Shown here one piece after another: positions 28,444 through 45,567 of a DNA stretch of 64,000 nucleotides. Each line of letters opens with the position of its first letter. The first letter of the stretch is position 1. A program made the translations under genes and the position numbers. A model generated the notes under the pieces. It was not told the origin of the DNA. It made no database searches and saw nothing but the letters and a program-made list of their open reading frames with translations. Source of the stretch: Achromobacter sp. MYb9 (GTDB lineage: Bacteria; Pseudomonadota; Gammaproteobacteria; Burkholderiales; Burkholderiaceae_B); the NCBI RefSeq assembly GCF_002975275.1, contig NZ_PCOQ01000021.1, positions 1-64,000 of the forward strand, given 5' to 3'.

Positions 28444-28693
28444 AAGACGCTTGACTCGGAATACAGGACGATATGGCGAGCAGTATGCGTAGGGCGTCGT
28501 CGAATTTTCATGAAATGCGGCACAACCGCCGCTTGCTGGAACTTGAGCGAATTCTAGGGACACGCACCGCGAAAACTATGAAGTCGCGTGCAAGCCTCGT
28601 TAACCTATGTCCCTGATTTGTGAAACCTCGTAAAGCAGCACCCAACCGGACGCCGGTAAAATGCGCCGGCTTTTCTTGTTTTCACAGGTTGTC

Positions 28694-29221
28694 ATGCAAT
28701 ACCGAGTCCGCCCTATGCTGGCCAGCGACGTGGACGGCATTCTGGATGCCCAGACCCTGGCCTACCCCGGCTTTCTGCTTGAAAGCGCGGAGTTCTTCCT
28801 CAATCGCCTGACGCTTGCGCCCGCCTATTGCTGGGTGGCGCGCGCAGCCGCCGACGACTCCCTGCTGGGTTACCTGGTTTCGTACCCCTGGGATGACGGC
28901 CTGCCTCCCGCGCTGGACGTGGCGTTGGCTGCGCTGCCGCCGCAGGCCGACCACTGGTTCCTGCATGACTGCGCCGTGGTGCCGTCCGCGCAAGGGCTGC
29001 GCGTGGGCCAGACGCTGCTTCGGACCGCTGCCAGCCAGGCCATGGAAAGCGGCATGCGCCGCGCCAGCCTCGTGTCGCTGGAGTCTGCCGTGGGCTATTG
29101 GCGGCGTCACGGCTATCAGGCGGTGTACGGCGAAGGCCGCTCGCTGCCCGCCGGACTGGCGGACAAGCTGGCCGGATACGGTCCGCAAGCCAGTTACATG
29201 TCGCGCGTGTTTCCGCTTTAG
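28694..29221 (+). CDS. GNAT-family N-acetyltransferase
   Basis: A 175-residue acetyl-CoA-dependent acyltransferase. The acetyl-CoA loop region is VVPSAQGLRVGQTLLRTA (R/Q-x-x-G-x-G/A type), and ESAVGYWRRHGYQ is the usual C-terminal strand-turn. ATG 28694 (MQYRVRP) gives the typical N-terminus; an ATG 33 bp upstream is less likely. Substrate unknown. It stands alone. Confidence 0.85.
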   Translation: MQYRVRPMLASDVDGILDAQTLAYPGFLLESAEFFLNRLTLAPAYCWVARAAADDSLLGYLVSYPWDDGLPPALDVALAALPPQADHWFLHDCAVVPSAQGLRVGQTLLRTAASQAMESGMRRASLVSLESAVGYWRRHGYQAVYGEGRSLPAGLADKLAGYGPQASYMSRVFPL

Positions 29222-29383
29222 GCGGCGCTTGCACCCGGCCTCCTGACGGGGCCACGCGCGTTGCCGCGCCCATATACATCGCTGCGATCACGGCCGTAAT
29301 ATAGGGCCACAGTCTGAACGATGTGGCGGCAACGGTTCCCCCCTGCTTTGCATTGCTGCGCCCGTCGGGGCGCGAAGGCCCAT

Positions 29384-30592
29384 ATGATTTCGCTTTCGCC
29401 CGTTCAATCCCTGCTTGCATGCTGCCTGGTGCTGGTCATCGGCCGGGTGCTGACCTCGCGCATCGGCATCCTGTCGCGCTACAGCATCCCCGATCCGATC
29501 GTGGGCGGCCTGCTGTTCGCCGTGCTGGCCTACTTGCTGTCGACATGGGGCGGCGTGTCGATTTCGATGGAAACCAGCATCAAGCCCACCTTGCTGCTGC
29601 TGTTCTTCGGCTGCATCGGGCTGACCGCGAACCTGAAGCTGCTGGCCAAGGGCGGCCCGCGGTTGATCGCCTTCCTGCTGGCGCTGATTCCCTTCCTGGT
29701 CCTGCAGAACGCCGTGGGCCTGGGCATGGCCTGGCTGCTGGACATGCATCCGCTGATGGGTCTGCTGGGCGGCACCATCACCCTGGTGGGCGGCCACGGC
29801 ACCGGCGCGGCCTATGCCACGCGCTTTGCCGACTTCAACAACATCCAGGACGTCATGGCGCTGGCGATGACCTCGGCCACGCTGGGCCTGGTGCTGGGCG
29901 GCGTGGTGGGTGGCCCGGTGGCGGAATGGATCATGCGGCGGCACAAGCTGGCCGGCAGCCTGGACCACCCGGCGCAGACCGGGCATGCCGCGCCGGATCT
30001 GGCCGAAGAGGCCGCCCCCGCCACGGCTGGCTCGTTCATCGTGTCGCTGACCGCCGCCTTCGTGTGCCTGGTCGTCGGCGGCTACCTTGCGATGCTGGTG
30101 GAAGGCGCACCGGTCAGCCTGCCCAACTTCCTGTGGTGCCTGGCAACCGGCGTGCTGATCCGCAACGTCGGCGTGCGCGTGGGCCTGAAGCTGGACGACC
30201 GCGCCACCGAAATCATCGGCACGATCTCGCTGTCGCTATTCCTGGGCATGACCATGATGACGCTGGACCTGTCCAGCGTGGCGCGATTGGCGGGCCCGCT
30301 GGCCCTGATGCTGATCGTGCAGACGCTGTTCTGCGCGTTGTATGCCACCTGGGTGGTGTTCCGGATGCTCAAGAGCGATTACGAAGCCGCCATCATGTCG
30401 GCCGCTTTCTGCGGATTCGGGCTGGGCGCCACGGCCACCGCCATCGCCAACATGCAGGCCCTGACGCGCCGCCACGGGCCCGCGCCGGAAGCCTTCATCG
30501 TGGTGCCGGTGACGGGCGCGTTCCTGGTCGACATCCTGAACGTGATCGTGCTGACGTCCTTGATTTCGCTGCCGTTCGTCGGAGGGATGTAA
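29384..30592 (+). CDS. gltS: GltS sodium/glutamate symporter
   Basis: A 402-residue inner-membrane symporter of the ESS family. The two inverted halves carry the re-entrant loop motifs GGTITLVGGHGTGAA (about residues 126-140) and AAFCGFGLGATATAIANM near residue 345. It takes up glutamate with sodium. ATG 29384 has GAAGG upstream. Only 2 bp separate its stop from the start of a TAXI-family binding lipoprotein, so the two are likely expressed together. Confidence 0.93.
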   Translation: MISLSPVQSLLACCLVLVIGRVLTSRIGILSRYSIPDPIVGGLLFAVLAYLLSTWGGVSISMETSIKPTLLLLFFGCIGLTANLKLLAKGGPRLIAFLLALIPFLVLQNAVGLGMAWLLDMHPLMGLLGGTITLVGGHGTGAAYATRFADFNNIQDVMALAMTSATLGLVLGGVVGGPVAEWIMRRHKLAGSLDHPAQTGHAAPDLAEEAAPATAGSFIVSLTAAFVCLVVGGYLAMLVEGAPVSLPNFLWCLATGVLIRNVGVRVGLKLDDRATEIIGTISLSLFLGMTMMTLDLSSVARLAGPLALMLIVQTLFCALYATWVVFRMLKSDYEAAIMSAAFCGFGLGATATAIANMQALTRRHGPAPEAFIVVPVTGAFLVDILNVIVLTSLISLPFVGGM

Positions 30593-30594
30593 GC

Positions 30595-32103
30595 ATGAAC
30601 CTGTCCATCCTAAAGCGTATTGCCCTGATCGGGCTGTGCCTGGTCCTGGCGGCCTGCGGCCGCGCGCCCGATACCGACGCCCTGCGCGCCGACGTCGAAC
30701 GCGGCCTGAACGCCACTTATGGTCAAGGCGTGTTCCGCATCGCCGAACTCACGCGCATGGGATCGGCCGCGGACAGCAACGCGCCCCCCGGCGAAACCCG
30801 CCGCGTGGTCTATTACGACGTCGAACTGGATTTGGGCCGCGACATCGCGCTAGGCGCCTGGGACCAGCCGGGCGCGGCGTCGCTGGTGACACTGCTGGGC
30901 GCGGGCCCGCGCAGCATCAGCGGCGTGAAGTCGGGCGGCAACCAGACGGGCGACCGCATCGTCGCCCACGCCAGCGCCATCTATCGTCAGGAAGGCGACG
31001 CCTGGAAACTCGTTACGCCGGCGGGTTTCAAAGCCGCCGAAGCGCCATCGCTGGATACGGGCGCCCCGCCTCCCGTCACGCAGCAGCTGCTGGACACGCT
31101 GGATCAGATCACCCACTCCGTCGCCTACAGCGCGTCCAGCACGGCGCAGCATGTCGTGCAGCAGGAGTTGGAGCGCTCGGTGTCCCGCATCAACGGCCGG
31201 CTGGCGCGAATGCAGCGGGGCTACCCGCTGGCTGGCGGCCCCGACCGCGGCGAGTACGTGGCCTTTGCCCGTGCGCTGGCCGCCGTGGGGCGCGCCCGGC
31301 AGATCCGCGTGACGCCGCTGATCACCGGTGGCGGCGCCGAGAACATCGCACTGCTGCGCAACGGCGACGCCGTCGTCGGCCTGGCGCAAGCCGACACCGC
31401 CCGCCTGGCCTATGAGGGCCGCGGCCCCTTTGCGGCGCAAGGCCCCTTCGTGGGGCTGCGTGCGCTGGGCAGCCTGTATCCCGAACTGGTCCACATCGTG
31501 GTCCGCGACGACCCGGCGCTACGCGGGGTGCGCGACCTGAAGGGCAAGACGATCGCGTTGGGGCCTGAAGGCTCCGCGGTGCGCGCCACGCTGGAGGCCG
31601 TGCTGGCAGCCCATGGCTTGCAGGCCGGCCGCGACTACAAGGTGGCGGACACGCCCTTTGCCGCGTCGCTGCCCGCCCTGAACGCGGGCACGGTGGATGC
31701 CGCCGCGCAGGTGATCGGCGTGCCCGCCACACCGCTGCGCGATGCCCTCACCCAGGCCCAACTGAAGCTGCTGCCGCTGGACCCGGCCGCCATCAAGACG
31801 CTGGCGGCCCCGGAGAGCGGGTTGATACCGCTGGAAATCGCGGCGGGCACCTACCCCAACCAGTCGGCGCCGATCCCGACAATCGGTACGGCCGCCCTGC
31901 TGCTCACCACCGCCGACCTGACCCGCGACGAAGCGCTGGTAGTCGTGCGCGCCGTCTACCAGACGGGCCAGGACCTGCTGGCCGCGGGCTCGCCCCAGGG
32001 CGCGCAGGTATCGGTGGCCAATGCCCGGCGCGGCCTGACCGTGCCGCTGCACGACGGCGCCGAAGAAGGATTGGCGCTGCTGGAGCACGCCAAACCGCGT
32101 TGA
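30595..32103 (+). CDS. TAXI-family substrate-binding lipoprotein with N-terminal extension
   Basis: A 502-residue protein with a lipoprotein signal (lipobox LAAC, Cys21), a region of about 185 residues unlike the binding domain, then a TAXI domain from about residue 208 (GPDRGEYVAFARALA, TGGGAENIALLRNGDAVVGLAQAD, LYPELVHIVV, DLKGKTIALGPEGSAVR). TAXI proteins normally deliver substrate to fused TRAP DctQM membrane subunits, but none is present. Here the gene follows gltS by 2 bp. The start ATG 30595 has GGAGGGA upstream. It is inferred to capture glutamate or a relative for GltS. Confidence 0.87.
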   Translation: MNLSILKRIALIGLCLVLAACGRAPDTDALRADVERGLNATYGQGVFRIAELTRMGSAADSNAPPGETRRVVYYDVELDLGRDIALGAWDQPGAASLVTLLGAGPRSISGVKSGGNQTGDRIVAHASAIYRQEGDAWKLVTPAGFKAAEAPSLDTGAPPPVTQQLLDTLDQITHSVAYSASSTAQHVVQQELERSVSRINGRLARMQRGYPLAGGPDRGEYVAFARALAAVGRARQIRVTPLITGGGAENIALLRNGDAVVGLAQADTARLAYEGRGPFAAQGPFVGLRALGSLYPELVHIVVRDDPALRGVRDLKGKTIALGPEGSAVRATLEAVLAAHGLQAGRDYKVADTPFAASLPALNAGTVDAAAQVIGVPATPLRDALTQAQLKLLPLDPAAIKTLAAPESGLIPLEIAAGTYPNQSAPIPTIGTAALLLTTADLTRDEALVVVRAVYQTGQDLLAAGSPQGAQVSVANARRGLTVPLHDGAEEGLALLEHAKPR

Positions 32104-32145
32104 CGCCGGTTGCGCTTATGATTGCGCTCCTAATCAGGAATTTCC

Positions 32146-32412
32146 ATGAATAAATTCGATCTTCAAAAGAACCAGGCCCTGAAGTTGGCCGGCCAACTCA
32201 AGCAGTCCGCCACCCCCGACCGCTTCGGCGTGGCCTCGCAGGCGCCCGACCGCCGCGAACAGCGCAAGCTGGATCAGGCCGCCGGCCTGGTGCCGTTTCC
32301 GCTGAAGCTGTCGCAAGCGCACGCCGACAAGCTGCGTGCCCTGGCGGCCGAACGCGGCGTGTCCACCAACGACATCGTGGCCGACGTGCTGCAGAAAGCA
32401 CTGGGCGAATAA
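32146..32412 (+). CDS. Small hypothetical protein, 88 residues
   Basis: No family recognised. A Lys/Gln-rich N-terminal helix is followed by a C-terminal segment (PFPLKLSQAHADKLRALAAERGVSTNDIVADVLQKALGE) that looks like a short ribbon-helix-helix or Arc-like fold, so a DNA-binding or antitoxin-type role is possible but unproven. AGGAA lies upstream of the ATG. It is followed 6 bp later by a YaiI/DUF188 gene and they probably form a pair. Confidence 0.75.
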   Translation: MNKFDLQKNQALKLAGQLKQSATPDRFGVASQAPDRREQRKLDQAAGLVPFPLKLSQAHADKLRALAAERGVSTNDIVADVLQKALGE

Positions 32413-32418
32413 GCGCTC

Positions 32419-32886
32419 ATGCATATCTGGGTCGATGCGGACGCGTGTCCCGTGGTCATCAAAGACATTCTGTTCCGCGCCGCGCAGCGTTGGCAGGTGC
32501 CGCTGACCCTGGTGGCCAACCAGCCCCTTGCCACCCCGCCCTCGCCGCTGATCCGAGCCGTGCAGGTACCCCGCGGCTTCGACGTGGCGGATGCGCATAT
32601 CGTCGAACGCGCGGAACCGGGCGATCTCGTCATCACCGCGGATATCCCGCTGGCCGCCGAAGTCCTGGAAAAAGGCGCCATGGCGCTGAACCCGCGCGGC
32701 GAACGCTATTCGCCGGAGACCATCCGGGAACGGCTGACGGTGCGGGACATGATGGAAGAATTGCGCGCAAGCGGCGTGGACACGGGCGGCCCGCCTTCGT
32801 TCAGCCAGGCCGACCGCAAAGCCTTCGCGAACCAGCTGGACACCCTGCTGGCCCGCATCGCCCGCCAGCAGGCGCCGAAAAGCTAA
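32419..32886 (+). CDS. YaiI/YqxD family protein (DUF188)
   Basis: A 155-residue DUF188 protein, predicted to have a PIN-like nuclease fold. Conserved blocks are [15 protein letters not shown] at the N-terminus, [24 protein letters not shown] and [13 protein letters not shown]. The acidic residues in DADACP and TADIPL suggest metal binding. No function is established. It is separated by 6 bp from the small upstream gene. Confidence 0.9.
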
Positions 32887-34330: not shown

Positions 34331-37300
34331 TTATTCCGACGCTGCATTGGCCGAGGCCGGCGGCGTCTGGGCGCCCGGCGGGTGGGCCGGGGGATGCTCT
34401 GCGCTGCCGGCATGGCCGGGTTTCTGGCGCGCGGTGGCAATCAGCGTGTACGCCACCGGCACGACGAACAAGGTCAGTAGTGTACCCAGCATCAGCCCGC
34501 CCACCAGCACCCAGCCGATCTGCTGGCGCGATTCCGCCCCCGCGCCCGTGGACAGAGCCAGCGGCACCGTGCCCAGCACCATGGCGCCGGTCGTCATCAA
34601 AATGGGGCGCAGCCGCAGCACGCTGGCCTCGGTGACGGCGGCGAACAGCTCGCGGCCTTCGTCGCGCAGCTGGTTGGTGAACTCTACGATCAGGATGCCG
34701 TGCTTGGTGATCAGCCCCACCAACGTGATGAGTCCGATCTGGCTGTAGATGGACAGCGTGCCGCCCGTCAGCCACAAGGCCAGCAGCGCGCCCGTCATGG
34801 ACAGCGGTACCGACAGCATGATGATGAAGGGGTTGCGCCAGCTTTCGAATTGCGCGGCCAGCACCAGGTAGATGAAGGCAAGCGCCATGGCGAAGACCAG
34901 GTAGATGCTGCCCGATGAATCGCGGAATTCGCGCGACTGGCCGTCCAGGTCGGTCACGATGGTGTTGGGCAGCACGTCGCGCGCGACCTGGTGCATGTGG
35001 GTCAGGACCTCGCCCAGGGCATAGCCCGGCGCGACGGCCGCGTCGATCTTCACGGCGCGCAGGCGGTTGAAGTGGTTCAGCGACTGCGGCGACACGCCTT
35101 CGTGCACGCCCAGCAGGTTATCCAGCTGCACCATGCTGCCGTCGCGCGCCCGCACGTAGATGCCAGAGATGTCGGTGGGGTTGGCGCGGTCGCGCGGCGT
35201 CACCTGCACGATCACGTCGTATTGCTCGCCTTCATCCTTGTAGCGGGTGACCTGGCGGCCGCCCAGCATCGATTCCAGCGTGCGGCCCACGGTGTCCACG
35301 TTGGCGCCCACGTCGGCCATCTTGTCGCGGTCCACGCGTACCCGCAGTTCGGGGGTGTTCAGGCGCAGGTCGGTGTCCAGATTGAGCAGGCCGGGGTACT
35401 TGCGCAGCTCGGTCAGGAACACGTCCGTCAAGCGGGCCAGCTCCTCGTAGGAGGCCTGGCTCATGATGATGAATTCCACCGGCTTGGAGCGCGCCGACTG
35501 GCCCAGCGATGGCGGGTTGGTCGGGAAGGCGCGCACGCCGGGCAGCGACGCGAACTGCGGCTGCAACTGCTGGGTGATGGCCTGCTGCTTGCGGTCACGC
35601 GCTTCCCATGGCTTCAAGCGCAGGATGGCGGTGCCGTCGGTCACGGTCGGAAAGCCCACGGTGACCTGGCTGCCGCTGGCTTCGGGGATCGCGGAATAGA
35701 ACTTCTCGATGCCCAGCATGCTGTCTAGCGTGTAGTTCAGCGTGGCGCCTTCCGGCGAACTGACGATGCCGAACACCACGCCGCGGTCTTCGATGGGCGC
35801 CAGTTCGCTTTTGACCACCTTGAACAGGACGCCGCTGCCGGCGGCCACGGCCACCCCGATCACGACGACCAGCCAGCGGTGGCGCAACGACGCCCCCAGC
35901 AGACGGCGGTAGCCGTTGCTCATGCCGTTCAGCCAGCCTTCGATCAGGTTGTACCAGCGGCTGTGGCTGCTTTGGTGGCGCAGCAGCACCGAGCACATCA
36001 TGGGCGTCAGCGTCAGGGCGACAAAGCCCGACACCAGCACGGCGCCGGCCAGGGCCAGCGCGAATTCGATGAACAGCCGGCCCGTCCGTCCGGTGGCGAA
36101 CGCCAACGGTGCGTACACGGTGACCAGCGTCATGGTCATGGCGACCACCGCGAACCCGATTTCCTTCGAGCCGCGCAGCGCGGCTTCCTTGCGCGGCATG
36201 CCCTCTTCGATATGGCGGTAGATGTTCTCGAGCACCACGATGGCGTCATCCACCACCAGGCCGATGGCCAGCACCATCGCCAGCAAGGTCAGCGTGTTGA
36301 TCGAAAAGCCAAAGAAGTACATCAGCGCGCAGGCGCCCACCAGCGACACCGGGATGGTGACGATGGGAATGATGCTGGCGCGCAGATTGCGCAGGAAAAA
36401 GAAGATCACCAGCACCACCAGGACGATGGCTTCGCCGATGGTGTGGAAGACGGAATCGATGGAACGTTCGATGAACACCGACGAGTCGTAGGCGATGTTC
36501 AGCTTCATGCCCGCCGGCAGCGTCTCGTTCAGGCGCTCGACTTCCAGGCGCGCCGCCTTGGACAATTCAAGCGGGTTGGCGGTGGATTGCCGCGTCACGC
36601 CGATGTTGATCGCCGGCTTGCCGTTGAAGCGCGACAGCACGCGGTCGCTGGCCGCCGCGATCTCGACCTTGGACACATCGCGCAGGCGGACGGGATAGCC
36701 CTTCACGTTAGCCACAATCACGTCTTCGAACTGCGCGGGCGTCTGCAGGTCGGTGGACGAGACCACCGAAAACTCGCGCGCGCGCGACTCAATCCGGCCG
36801 GCCGGAATCTCCACGTTCTGGCTGCGCAAGGCGGCTTCGACGTCCTGCACGGTCAGGCCGTAGGCGGCCAGCTTGTCGCGGTCGACGTAGATGCGCATGG
36901 ACGGCAGGCGCTCGCCGAAGACGCGGACTTCGGCCGCGCCCGGCAGCACGGACAGCCGGGTCTTGATGTATCGGTTGATGTAGTCGGAAGTCTGGATCGC
37001 CGAGTACGTGCCGGACTCCACCGCGATGTAGATGATGGGCTGGGAGTCGGCCTCGACCTTGCCGATGATGGGCTCGTCGATCTCGTCGGGCAGGAAGCGC
37101 CGGGCGCGCGACACCTTGTCGCGCACTTCGGCCGCCGCGGCGTCCGGGTTGCGGGACAGGTTGAATTTGATGTTGATCAGACTGCGTTCGGAGCGGCTGC
37201 GCGAGGTCATCACGTCCACGCCTTCGATGCCGGCCAACTGGTCTTCCAGCGGCTTGGTCACCTGCGATTCGATCACCTCGGGCGAGGCGCCCTTGTAGGT

Positions 37301-37447
37301 GGTGTCCACCGACACGATGGGCTCGTCGATCTTGGGATATTCGCGCACGGTCAGGCGCGAATAGGAAATCAAGCCGATCAGCACGATGATCAGCGACAGG
37401 ACCGACGCGAACACCGGCCGCTTGATGCAGGTTTCCGAGATACGCAT
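34331..37447 (-). CDS. RND multidrug efflux pump, inner-membrane subunit
   Basis: A 1038-residue HAE-type RND transporter with 12 hydrophobic segments. The proton-relay Asp pair D400-D401 lies in VLAIGLVVDDAIVVLENIYRH, and the large periplasmic loops and C-terminal VGLITKHGILIVEF block are typical. It pairs with the membrane fusion protein gene 33 bp upstream. No outer-membrane channel gene is nearby, so it presumably uses a TolC/OprM-type channel from elsewhere. A long open frame on the other strand is an artefact of codon bias. Confidence 0.95.
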   Translation of the reverse strand: MRISETCIKRPVFASVLSLIIVLIGLISYSRLTVREYPKIDEPIVSVDTTYKGASPEVIESQVTKPLEDQLAGIEGVDVMTSRSRSERSLINIKFNLSRNPDAAAAEVRDKVSRARRFLPDEIDEPIIGKVEADSQPIIYIAVESGTYSAIQTSDYINRYIKTRLSVLPGAAEVRVFGERLPSMRIYVDRDKLAAYGLTVQDVEAALRSQNVEIPAGRIESRAREFSVVSSTDLQTPAQFEDVIVANVKGYPVRLRDVSKVEIAAASDRVLSRFNGKPAINIGVTRQSTANPLELSKAARLEVERLNETLPAGMKLNIAYDSSVFIERSIDSVFHTIGEAIVLVVLVIFFFLRNLRASIIPIVTIPVSLVGACALMYFFGFSINTLTLLAMVLAIGLVVDDAIVVLENIYRHIEEGMPRKEAALRGSKEIGFAVVAMTMTLVTVYAPLAFATGRTGRLFIEFALALAGAVLVSGFVALTLTPMMCSVLLRHQSSHSRWYNLIEGWLNGMSNGYRRLLGASLRHRWLVVVIGVAVAAGSGVLFKVVKSELAPIEDRGVVFGIVSSPEGATLNYTLDSMLGIEKFYSAIPEASGSQVTVGFPTVTDGTAILRLKPWEARDRKQQAITQQLQPQFASLPGVRAFPTNPPSLGQSARSKPVEFIIMSQASYEELARLTDVFLTELRKYPGLLNLDTDLRLNTPELRVRVDRDKMADVGANVDTVGRTLESMLGGRQVTRYKDEGEQYDVIVQVTPRDRANPTDISGIYVRARDGSMVQLDNLLGVHEGVSPQSLNHFNRLRAVKIDAAVAPGYALGEVLTHMHQVARDVLPNTIVTDLDGQSREFRDSSGSIYLVFAMALAFIYLVLAAQFESWRNPFIIMLSVPLSMTGALLALWLTGGTLSIYSQIGLITLVGLITKHGILIVEFTNQLRDEGRELFAAVTEASVLRLRPILMTTGAMVLGTVPLALSTGAGAESRQQIGWVLVGGLMLGTLLTLFVVPVAYTLIATARQKPGHAGSAEHPPAHPPGAQTPPASANAASE

Positions 37448-37480
37448 TGCGCTATCGCCAAGAAAGAAGAAGAGCCGGCG

Positions 37481-38563
37481 TCACGAGCCGCCGCCGACGA
37501 CGTCCACGGTGGCGCCGTCCGTCACGCGCTGCATGCCCGCCACCACCAGCTTATCGCCGACCGCCACGCCTGTGAGGATCTCGACGCGGCCTTCGCGGCG
37601 CTCACCGATCGTGACCTCGCGCCGCTCGGCGCGGCCGTCCTTGATGCGGTAAACGTACTGCGTTTCGCCCGAGGGAGACAACGCGGCCTCTGGCGCGACC
37701 AGCGCCTTGTCCTGATTGAACAGCAGTTGCACGCGGGCGAACATGCCCGGACGCAGCACCGCATCCTTGTTGGCAACGGTGGCGCGCAGCAGAATGGACC
37801 GGCCGCCCGCGTCGATCAGCGGGCTGACGGCGTAGACCATCCCCTGGCGCTCCTGGCCGGGCAGCGCGTCCAGGCGCAACGTCAGCTGCTGGCCAACGCC
37901 GACCTTGCTGAGATACATCTCCGGCACGCGGAAATCCACTTTCAACGGGTCGATGGCCTCAAGCGGCGCCAGGTCTTGCCCCTGGTTGACGTAATCGCCC
38001 ACGGACACGCTGCGCAACCCCACGATGCCGCCAAACGGCGCCGAAATCGTCATCTTGTCCAGCCGGGCCTGCGCCAGCGCCACCGCCGCCTCCTGGACCT
38101 TCAACGTACTGGCGGATTCGTCACGGGCCTGCTGGCTGACGAAGCCCTTGCCCTGCAATTCCACCGCGCGGCGGTAGTGGCTCTGGGCCAGGGTCAGGTT
38201 GGCGCGAGCCTGCGCCAGTTCGGCCCGCGGCACGGAGTCATCCAGCCGGATCAGCGTCTGGCCGCGCGCGACCGGCTGCCCTTCCTTGAATTCGATGGTC
38301 TGGATGCGCCCGGTTACTTCGGGCCGCAGCACCACGGACTCGTCGGAACGCAGGCTGCCCACGGCGGACAAGCCGCGCGCGAACGGAATTTCCTGGACGG
38401 CCGCCACCTCGACGCGCACGGGACTGGCCGGCGCCACTTTCGGCGGGGTAACGGTCTGGCTGGTGGTGACCCCGGGCGCGAGCCAGCGCGGCACAAAAAC
38501 GCCAAGTGCGGCCCCCGCGGCCAACCCGGCCGCGACGGCGGCCAGCAGTACAGCTTTTTTCAT
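37481..38563 (-). CDS. RND membrane fusion protein (HlyD/AcrA family)
   Basis: A 360-residue periplasmic adaptor. It has an N-terminal membrane anchor (KKAVLLAAVAAGLAAGAALG), the lipoyl-type motif VTGRIQTIEFKEGQPVARGQTLIRLD, an alpha-helical hairpin, then APFGGIVGLRSVSVGDYVNQGQDL and a beta-barrel/membrane-proximal region. ATG 38563 (MKKAV) is chosen over an in-frame extension upstream. It forms a two-gene efflux unit with the RND gene. Confidence 0.93.
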   Translation of the reverse strand: MKKAVLLAAVAAGLAAGAALGVFVPRWLAPGVTTSQTVTPPKVAPASPVRVEVAAVQEIPFARGLSAVGSLRSDESVVLRPEVTGRIQTIEFKEGQPVARGQTLIRLDDSVPRAELAQARANLTLAQSHYRRAVELQGKGFVSQQARDESASTLKVQEAAVALAQARLDKMTISAPFGGIVGLRSVSVGDYVNQGQDLAPLEAIDPLKVDFRVPEMYLSKVGVGQQLTLRLDALPGQERQGMVYAVSPLIDAGGRSILLRATVANKDAVLRPGMFARVQLLFNQDKALVAPEAALSPSGETQYVYRIKDGRAERREVTIGERREGRVEILTGVAVGDKLVVAGMQRVTDGATVDVVGGGS

Positions 38564-38739
38564 GCGCGAATGTGGCGGTGGTGCGGCGCGGGCCGTTTTC
38601 CCCACATGGCCGATGCCGCAGGAACTGGAATGGGGATGGCACTGTAGCACCCGAATTTACATACTGGAACAATCCAGAAGCCGGATGAAAGAACTAAATC
38701 CGCCCCAAAAGGCGGAATTCAGGGTATATCCCGATGCCG

Positions 38740-44580: not shown

Positions 44581-45567
44581 TCAGTCCGCCCGCAGCCCGA
44601 TTGATTCCGTCAACGCCGTGTAGCGGTCGATGTCGGCATTGATCATCTTCTGAAATTCGCGCGGCGTGCTGCTGGCCGGCGTGAAGCCCTGCTCGCGCAG
44701 CGACGCCTGTACCTCCGGATTCCGCACGATCTTCGCCACGGCGGCATTCAACCTGTCGACCACCGCGGGCGGCGTGGCGGCTGGGGTCAGCAAGCCGTGC
44801 CACTGGTCCAGCGCATAGCCCGCGACGCCCTGCTCGGCCACTGTCGGCACGGTGGGCATCAGCGGAGAGCGCGCCGGTGACGTCACGGCCAACGCGCGCA
44901 GCTTGCCTGCGGCGATGAGCGGCGCGGCACTGGACGCCGTCACGATGCCCATTGCCACCTGTCCCGCCGTCACGTCGGTCAAGGCGGGACCACACCCTTT
45001 GTACGGCACATGTTGCAACACCGCGCCCGTCGCGCGCGCCAGCATCTCGCCCGCCAGATGCTGCGGCGTGCCATTGCCGCAAGACGCGAACGGCAGCGGC
45101 TTGGACGCCTGCGCCGCGGCCAGCGCCTCATCCATTGTCCGCAGCGGCGAGGTTGCCGGCACCACGAAGACCGACGGCACGAACGCCACATTGATCACCG
45201 CGGAAAAATCCCGCTTGGGCGCAAAGCCCAGATTCCGATAGACCCCGGGGTTGATCGCGAACGAGCTGTTCACCATCAACAGCGTGTAGCCGTCGGGCGG
45301 CGCTTCCGCGACGATGCGCGCGCCGATGTTGCCGCTGGCGCCGGGGCGATTTTCCACCACCACCGGCTGGCCCAGTTGCTCTTGCAGGCTGGCGCCGATG
45401 CGGCGCGCCAGCAGGTCGGTGCCACCGCCTGGCGGAAACGTCACGACGATGGTGATGGGGTGCACGGGATAGGACGCGTCACCGGTGGCTTCGCCCGAAG
45501 GCGAATTGCCGCAGGCTGCCAGCGACAGCGCGAACAGCGGAAGAAAGGATCGAAGCAGACGTTTCAT
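44581..45567 (-). CDS. Bug/TctC-family solute-binding lipoprotein (orphan)
   Basis: A 328-residue tripartite-tricarboxylate-type binding protein. The lipobox is LAACGN (Cys near residue 19), then the family marks ITIVVTFPPGGGTDLLARRI, VENRPGASGNIGARIVA and GYTLLMVNSS. The lipid anchor is less usual, since most Bug proteins are soluble periplasmic. No TctAB membrane genes are near. Bug proteins are greatly expanded in Bordetella and Achromobacter; ligand unknown. Confidence 0.92.
   Translation of the reverse strand: MKRLLRSFLPLFALSLAACGNSPSGEATGDASYPVHPITIVVTFPPGGGTDLLARRIGASLQEQLGQPVVVENRPGASGNIGARIVAEAPPDGYTLLMVNSSFAINPGVYRNLGFAPKRDFSAVINVAFVPSVFVVPATSPLRTMDEALAAAQASKPLPFASCGNGTPQHLAGEMLARATGAVLQHVPYKGCGPALTDVTAGQVAMGIVTASSAAPLIAAGKLRALAVTSPARSPLMPTVPTVAEQGVAGYALDQWHGLLTPAATPPAVVDRLNAAVAKIVRNPEVQASLREQGFTPASSTPREFQKMINADIDRYTALTESIGLRAD

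What the first reader, a model, noticed from the sequence alone, without database searches (positions are those of the whole stretch)
29384..32103. GltS symporter coupled to a TAXI substrate-binding lipoprotein without TRAP membrane subunits
Seen: gltS and a TAXI-domain lipoprotein gene are 2 bp apart on one strand, and no DctQ/DctM-like gene is nearby. Known: TAXI proteins normally serve TRAP transporters, GltS normally works without a binding protein, and to my knowledge a glutamate-specific TAXI protein has been described in Vibrio cholerae. Inference: this pair may be a binding-protein-assisted glutamate symporter, with the binding protein tethered by its lipid to the membrane.
Basis: partly seen in the sequence, partly recalled or inferred. 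Interest (0 to 1): 0.7.

Follow-up and report, generated by a model that had tools for sequence, protein, structure and literature searches.

The report
Glutamate pump with tethered binding protein
An Achromobacter-like bacterium carries a sodium-driven glutamate importer gene next to a gene for a lipid-anchored glutamate-catching protein, a pairing already described in the whooping-cough bacterium in 2025, so this is a good example of a known system and not a new one.

Summary
In detail: gltS (29384-30592) and a TAXI lipoprotein gene (30595-32103) lie 2 bp apart on the + strand. The window's TAXI protein is 69% identical to the B. pertussis protein over 494 residues and shares its architecture, lipobox cysteine, dimer leucine and both glutamate-binding residues.

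Added here: the two fused TRAP membrane proteins over cut-off in the genome each sit beside another TAXI gene. Of 39 surveyed genomes with the long TAXI form, 38 have gltS directly upstream; one is cut by a contig end. TAXI-linked GltS form one clade.

Still open: the paper states that coupling to GltS transport needs verification, and my searches found no later test. The residue after the lipidated cysteine is mostly Gly or Ser, which by the recalled E. coli rule points to the outer membrane. Verdict: already known.

The parts
29384..30592 (+). gltS, Na+/glutamate symporter (ESS family), 402 aa
   Evidence: PF03616 4.5e-110; TIGR00210 387.1 bits, cut-off 310.75
29789..29803 (+). GGHGT motif of GltS, residues 136-140
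   Evidence: read; in the 64-row GltS alignment columns 136, 137 and 139 are at least 97% conserved. That it lies in a re-entrant loop near the substrate is recalled
29813..29869 (+). GltS residues 144-162, which hold 5 of the 8 residues diagnostic of TAXI-linked GltS (Y144, A145, N153, Q155, M162)
   Evidence: in residues 136-165 two stand-alone control clades have 1 of 5 and 4 of 37, and the 29-member core of the TAXI-linked group 3 of 17
30581..30586 (+). Shine-Dalgarno-like GGAGGG before the TAXI gene, inside the end of gltS
   Evidence: read; 8 nt before ATG 30595
30595..32103 (+). long (three-part) TAXI binding lipoprotein, 502 aa
   Evidence: 69% identical to the B. pertussis protein P0052 over 494 residues
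30595..30657 (+). lipoprotein signal with cysteine 21 (lipobox LAAC, next residue Gly)
   Evidence: Cys21 in 106 of 106 long proteins, the window's own included
30658..31035 (+). N-terminal alpha/beta domain, residues 22-147
   Evidence: no family above its cut-off in this part; 10-residue blocks from 21 to 140 at pLDDT 76-96, block 141-150 at 56; PilO-like fold is from PMC12344293, not tested here
31075..31218 (+). helical domain, residues 161-208 (helices 161-175 and 182-208), dimer interface by orthology; holds L203 = L201 of BP0403
   Evidence: secondary structure of the model, low confidence here (blocks at pLDDT 52-71); L203 in 106 of 106; dimer role from PMC12344293
31222..32100 (+). 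TAXI substrate-binding domain, residues 210-502
31255..31257 (+). Tyr221, equals Y219 of BP0403 (Y45 of VcGluP according to the paper)
   Evidence: 105 of 106 long proteins; role from PMC12344293
31387..31389 (+). Gln265, equals Q263 of BP0403 (Q93 of VcGluP according to the paper)
   Evidence: 102 of 106 long proteins; role from PMC12344293

Best explanation
This is the Achromobacter ortholog of the TAXI-GltS system. GltS is the Na+-coupled glutamate carrier. The TAXI lipoprotein is exported, lipid-anchored at Cys21 and, by orthology, dimerises through its helical domain; its C-terminal domain closes on L-glutamate (Tyr221 and Gln265 as main contacts) and hands it to the periplasmic side of a GltS dimer, which moves it inward by an elevator motion. 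Shown here: gene order, domains, residues, conservation of the pairing, no spare fused TRAP partner over cut-off. Shown in print for the B. pertussis ortholog: nanomolar L-glutamate binding, the two key residues, the dimer. Inferred in both: the hand-over to GltS, whether it is obligatory or only helpful, and the membrane in which the lipid sits.
Against: No transport data here, and PMC12344293 says that functional coupling needs to be verified. 27 of the 58 gltS-bearing family genomes (one of them with only a 40-residue stub) and 19 of the 21 gltS-bearing genomes of the class sample lack the long TAXI, so GltS in general works without it; whether this clade needs it is unknown. The residue after the lipid cysteine is Gly here and Gly or Ser in 86 of the 102 long proteins in which a lipobox was found; by the E. 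coli sorting rule (recalled) that points to the outer membrane, which fits poorly with an anchor beside GltS. Of 106 long proteins one has Ser for the tyrosine, three have Pro and one a gap at the glutamine. The helical domain is modelled with low confidence (pLDDT 52-71).
Confidence: 0.85

Rival explanations
1. The TAXI lipoprotein is a glutamate sensor or regulator that shares the operon for co-expression but does not feed GltS.
For: Direct hand-over has not been shown. The N-terminal domain has no family match above cut-off, and GltS relatives in the same bacterial family occur without the long TAXI (27 of 58 gltS-bearing genomes).
Against: No signalling family matched. The paper reports TAXI-GltS single-chain fusions in Lachnospiraceae and an AF3 heterotetramer (neither re-tested here). 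Long TAXI found in 0 of 63 family genomes without gltS.
Confidence: 0.08
2. The TAXI protein serves a TRAP membrane protein encoded elsewhere in the genome and sits by gltS for co-regulation.
For: TAXI proteins as a family serve TRAP transporters. 14 weaker TRAP_fused matches exist in the genome, all below the family cut-off; I did not examine them or their neighbours. They are probably DctM of DctP-type systems (recalled, not tested).
Against: The only two TRAP_fused proteins over cut-off each adjoin another TAXI gene. Five reduced genomes have the pair and no TRAP_fused match. gltS is directly upstream in 38 of 39 genomes.
Confidence: 0.03
3. Chance neighbours: two unrelated genes 2 bp apart.
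For: None found.
Against: Conserved adjacency in 38 of 39 surveyed genomes, with the TAXI protein diverged to as little as 28% identity, and in 26 of 26 named Achromobacter loci.
Confidence: 0.01

Closest known systems
TAXI-GltS system, BP0402/BP0403 of Bordetella pertussis (Jaques et al. 2025, PMC12344293)
   Same: Gene order gltS then TAXI, same strand; three-part lipoprotein of about 503 aa; key Tyr, Gln and dimer Leu; no TRAP partner gene; TAXI protein 69% identical
   Different: Genes 2 bp apart here, overlapping by 3 bp in B. pertussis according to the paper; I found no other difference
VcGluP/VcGluQM, glutamate TAXI-TRAP of Vibrio cholerae (PMC11574862)
   Different: VcGluP is predicted soluble (Sec/SPI) and serves a fused TRAP membrane protein (passages)
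Stand-alone GltS (ESS family, TC 2.A.27), such as E. coli GltS
   Same: Same Pfam and NCBIfam families
   Different: No linked long TAXI; 30 GltS of the same bacterial family without it fall outside the TAXI-linked clade

Membership tests
TAXI-GltS system (Jaques et al. 2025) | gltS and a TAXI SBP gene adjacent, same strand, coupled | tested here: met
   2 bp apart, SD-like site inside gltS; adjacency conserved
TAXI-GltS system (Jaques et al. 2025) | long lipoprotein with N-terminal domain, helical domain, C-terminal TAXI domain | tested here: met
   69% identity to the B. pertussis protein over 494 residues without gaps
TAXI-GltS system (Jaques et al. 2025) | glutamate-site Tyr and Gln (Y219, Q263 of BP0403) | tested here: met
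   Y221 and Q265 in the window protein
TAXI-GltS system (Jaques et al. 2025) | no TRAP membrane gene as partner | tested here: met
   tested neighbours and no TRAP_fused match on contig C21; two TRAP_fused over cut-off in the genome, both beside other TAXI genes
TAXI-GltS system (Jaques et al. 2025) | binds L-glutamate, dimerises, delivers to GltS | not testable with these tools
   binding and dimer shown for BP0403 in the paper; delivery stated there as still to be verified
GltS / ESS family | TIGR00210 equivalog over cut-off, full length | tested here: met
   387.1 bits, residues 4-397 of 402
TAXI SBP family | TIGR02122 over cut-off and TAXI fold | tested here: met
TAXI-TRAP transporter | fused TRAP membrane component encoded with the SBP | tested here: not met
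   none among the tested neighbours or on contig C21; the two TRAP_fused over cut-off lie on other contigs beside other TAXI genes

The most novel reading that the evidence does not exclude
The GltS of this clade has become specialised for, and perhaps dependent on, its binding protein: it carries a clade signature behind the GGHGT motif (Y144, A145, N153, Q155, M162) that marks TAXI coupling, and reduced endosymbionts (Kinetoplastibacterium) have kept the two-gene system as a glutamate route while lacking the other binding-protein transporter families tested here.
Probability: 0.3. Interest if true: 0.45.

Novelty: already known. Interest (0 to 1): 0.25.

Why it matters
If the hand-over is real, GltS joins TRAP and TTT transporters as a third family of secondary carriers that use a binding protein, as the 2025 paper argues. 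The window adds a well-conserved example in another genus. The survey shows that the long TAXI form goes with gltS (38 of 39 genomes). The reduced genomes are an independent natural argument that the pair is a unit without TRAP.

Tried and rejected
TRAP partner elsewhere: rejected for proteins over cut-off; the 14 weaker matches were not followed. Chance neighbours: rejected. Conventional TAXI next to gltS: I compared by eye the listed TAXI places with the gltS places for the 27 gltS genomes without a long TAXI and saw none within 5 kb, but the list was truncated (for example the places in G005 and G014 are not shown), so this is incomplete; the paper reports such pairs in other bacteria. Promoter and terminator scan of 29000-32500: nothing found. 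Rfam on 28500-32600: nothing. N-terminal domain fold: the fold comparison was filled by the SBP domain (residues 201-500), so the published PilO-like fold was not tested. A search for papers with the whole words Kinetoplastibacterium and TAXI gave 0; the passages found in PMC3846528 name no glutamate carrier. A search on lipoprotein sorting with Bordetella gave one review whose passages did not help, so the E. coli +2 rule stays recalled.

Caveats of my counts. The four genome samples overlap (G000 is in all, others recur), so genomes are counted once by handle. The order and phylum searches had strict limits (E 1e-70 and 1e-62) and scored at most 5 or 3 candidates a genome, so more diverged long TAXI proteins may be missed. 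The 106 long proteins are those of 480-530 aa among the 120 listed of 193 hits plus the window's own. The loci come from patterns that find close relatives only. Start codons in the gap counts were chosen by script near the alignment start; in L078, a near-copy of the B. pertussis protein, the script took an ATG two codons downstream of the published start, so a gap of 2 there is an overlap by the published start. The tree holds 34 linked and 30 unlinked GltS that I selected; fragments and split copies (G055, G094, G057, G119, G108) and matches below cut-off in G004, G046, G076 and G099 were left out. The output warned of long branches (L124, L103 and others), so the farthest members are less surely placed. 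The signature residues were not tested statistically; conserved regions cluster anyway, and the 29-member core of the linked group has only 3 of 17 of its own marks in 136-165.

Full report
Observation. gltS is 29384-30592 (+), 402 aa, with PF03616 at E 4.5e-110 and TIGR00210 at 387.1 bits over a cut-off of 310.75. The TAXI gene starts with ATG at 30595 and ends at 32103, 502 aa, so two bases lie between them. A GGAGGG at 30581-30586, inside the end of gltS, is placed to serve the TAXI start. TIGR02122 covers residues 210-490 with 191.9 bits (cut-off 84.35); the part before it has no family match above cut-off. The start reads as a lipoprotein signal, LAAC with Cys21. Tested neighbours are a GNAT acetyltransferase upstream and, downstream, a small protein with sub-threshold ribbon-helix-helix matches and a YaiI/YqxD protein.

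What is already in print. Full-text searches gave 2 papers, 1 and 1; the one on topic in all three is Jaques et al., Commun Biol 12 Aug 2025, PMC12344293. I read its abstract, introduction, methods, results and discussion, not its supplement or reference list. [quoted passage not shown] BP0403 is a dimer through the helical domain (L201R makes it a monomer) and binds L-glutamate with Kd 180 nM; Y219A and Q263A weaken binding 167- and 250-fold. Its gene overlaps the end of gltS by 3 bp, with no TRAP membrane gene in the operon or immediate region. The paper reports gltS next to TAXI genes in other bacteria, TAXI-GltS fusions in Lachnospiraceae and an AF3 heterotetramer, and states that functional coupling needs to be experimentally verified. 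The glutamate-specific V. cholerae TAXI it recalled is VcGluP (PMC11574862; search listing and passages only).

Is there a TRAP partner? In the window's genome (6.68 Mb, 59 contigs) three proteins exceed the TAXI cut-off: one on contig C30, one on C22, and this one; 20 weaker matches lie below it. Two exceed the TRAP_fused cut-off, at C30:21935 and C22:88573, each just downstream of one of the other two TAXI genes; both carry a DctM domain. Fourteen weaker TRAP_fused matches fall below the cut-off, none on the window's contig, and were not followed.

Conservation. In a sample of 121 genomes of the same family, gltS was found in 58 and the long TAXI in 31. All 31 are among the 58 and none among the 63 without gltS. 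In 30 of 31 gltS is directly upstream on the same strand; in the 31st (G094) the TAXI gene is cut by the contig end and gltS is a fragment on another contig. Within the genus sample 5 of 6 have the pair and the sixth (G045) lacks both. Of the 58, 27 have gltS without the long TAXI, one of them only a 40-residue stub. Samples of 274 genomes of the class, 300 of the order and 398 of the phylum, overlapping in part, gave full-length matches in 8 further genomes, and gltS is directly upstream in all 8. The total is 38 of 39. In the class sample the other 35 of 37 matched genomes match only from model position 191 on, as ordinary TAXI proteins do, and 19 of 21 gltS-bearing genomes lack the long form. 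Among 54 distinct linked gltS sequences the gap is 2 bp in 35, between -14 and 3 bp in 49, and 13-170 bp in 5 (starts chosen by script).

Tree. In a tree of 64 selected GltS proteins (34 TAXI-linked, 30 not) the TAXI-linked ones form one group, support 95/95, in 96% of 200 bootstrap trees; the label needs 1 change against a mean of 21.5 in shuffles. The output warns of long branches (L124, L103 and others), so the place of the farthest members is less sure. Eight residues mark the TAXI-linked group; five of them (Y144, A145, N153, Q155, M162) follow the GGHGT motif. Two unlinked clades have 1 of 5 and 4 of 37 of their marks in 136-165, and the 29-member core of the linked group 3 of 17. This is a lead, not a test of function.

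Reduced genomes. Five small genomes (four of 0.8 Mb with one genus label, one of 0.9 Mb) keep the pair with a single TAXI match. TRAP_fused was found in 0 of 5, TctC in 0 of 5, SBP_bac_3 in 1 of 5 (G039, 47.1 bits). So in the four 0.8 Mb genomes TAXI is the only one of the binding-protein families tested that is left; other such families were not tested. No paper in the library holds both Kinetoplastibacterium and TAXI as whole words, which is a narrow search.

A caveat not addressed in the paper sections I read. The residue after the lipidated cysteine is Gly here. A lipobox pattern was found in 102 of 106 long proteins, with Gly 75, Ser 11, Glu 6, Asp 4, Leu 3 and Ala 3 after the cysteine. 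By the E. coli sorting rule (recalled: Asp there holds lipoproteins in the inner membrane) most would travel to the outer membrane. The rule may not hold in these bacteria, but the inner-membrane anchor of the published model is an assumption worth testing.

Verdict. The window is a further member of a published system, and I found no feature that departs from it. What remains open is the transport step itself.

Noticed in passing
   Followed up: partly
30655-30660 (Cys21-Gly22) and the long homologues: The residue after the lipidated cysteine is Gly or Ser in 86 of 102, which by the recalled E. coli rule predicts outer-membrane sorting, at odds with an anchor next to GltS.
   Followed up: partly
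29813-29869 (GltS residues 144-162): Five of eight residues that set TAXI-linked GltS apart from unlinked GltS sit just behind the GGHGT motif.
   Followed up: partly
whole genome G000; one copy at window 44593-45408 (-): At least 127 TctC (Bug) binding-protein matches in this genome (127 of 151 candidates were scored), a very large set.
   Followed up: no
L082 (G055:C24:61644-62836): gltS of this relative is split over two frames directly upstream of an intact long TAXI gene; sequencing error or a broken gene, not examined.
   Followed up: no
34331-38650 (-): Long open frames on the minus strand that look like an RND-type efflux pump (1038 aa) and its adaptor, by eye from the translations; not searched.
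   Followed up: no
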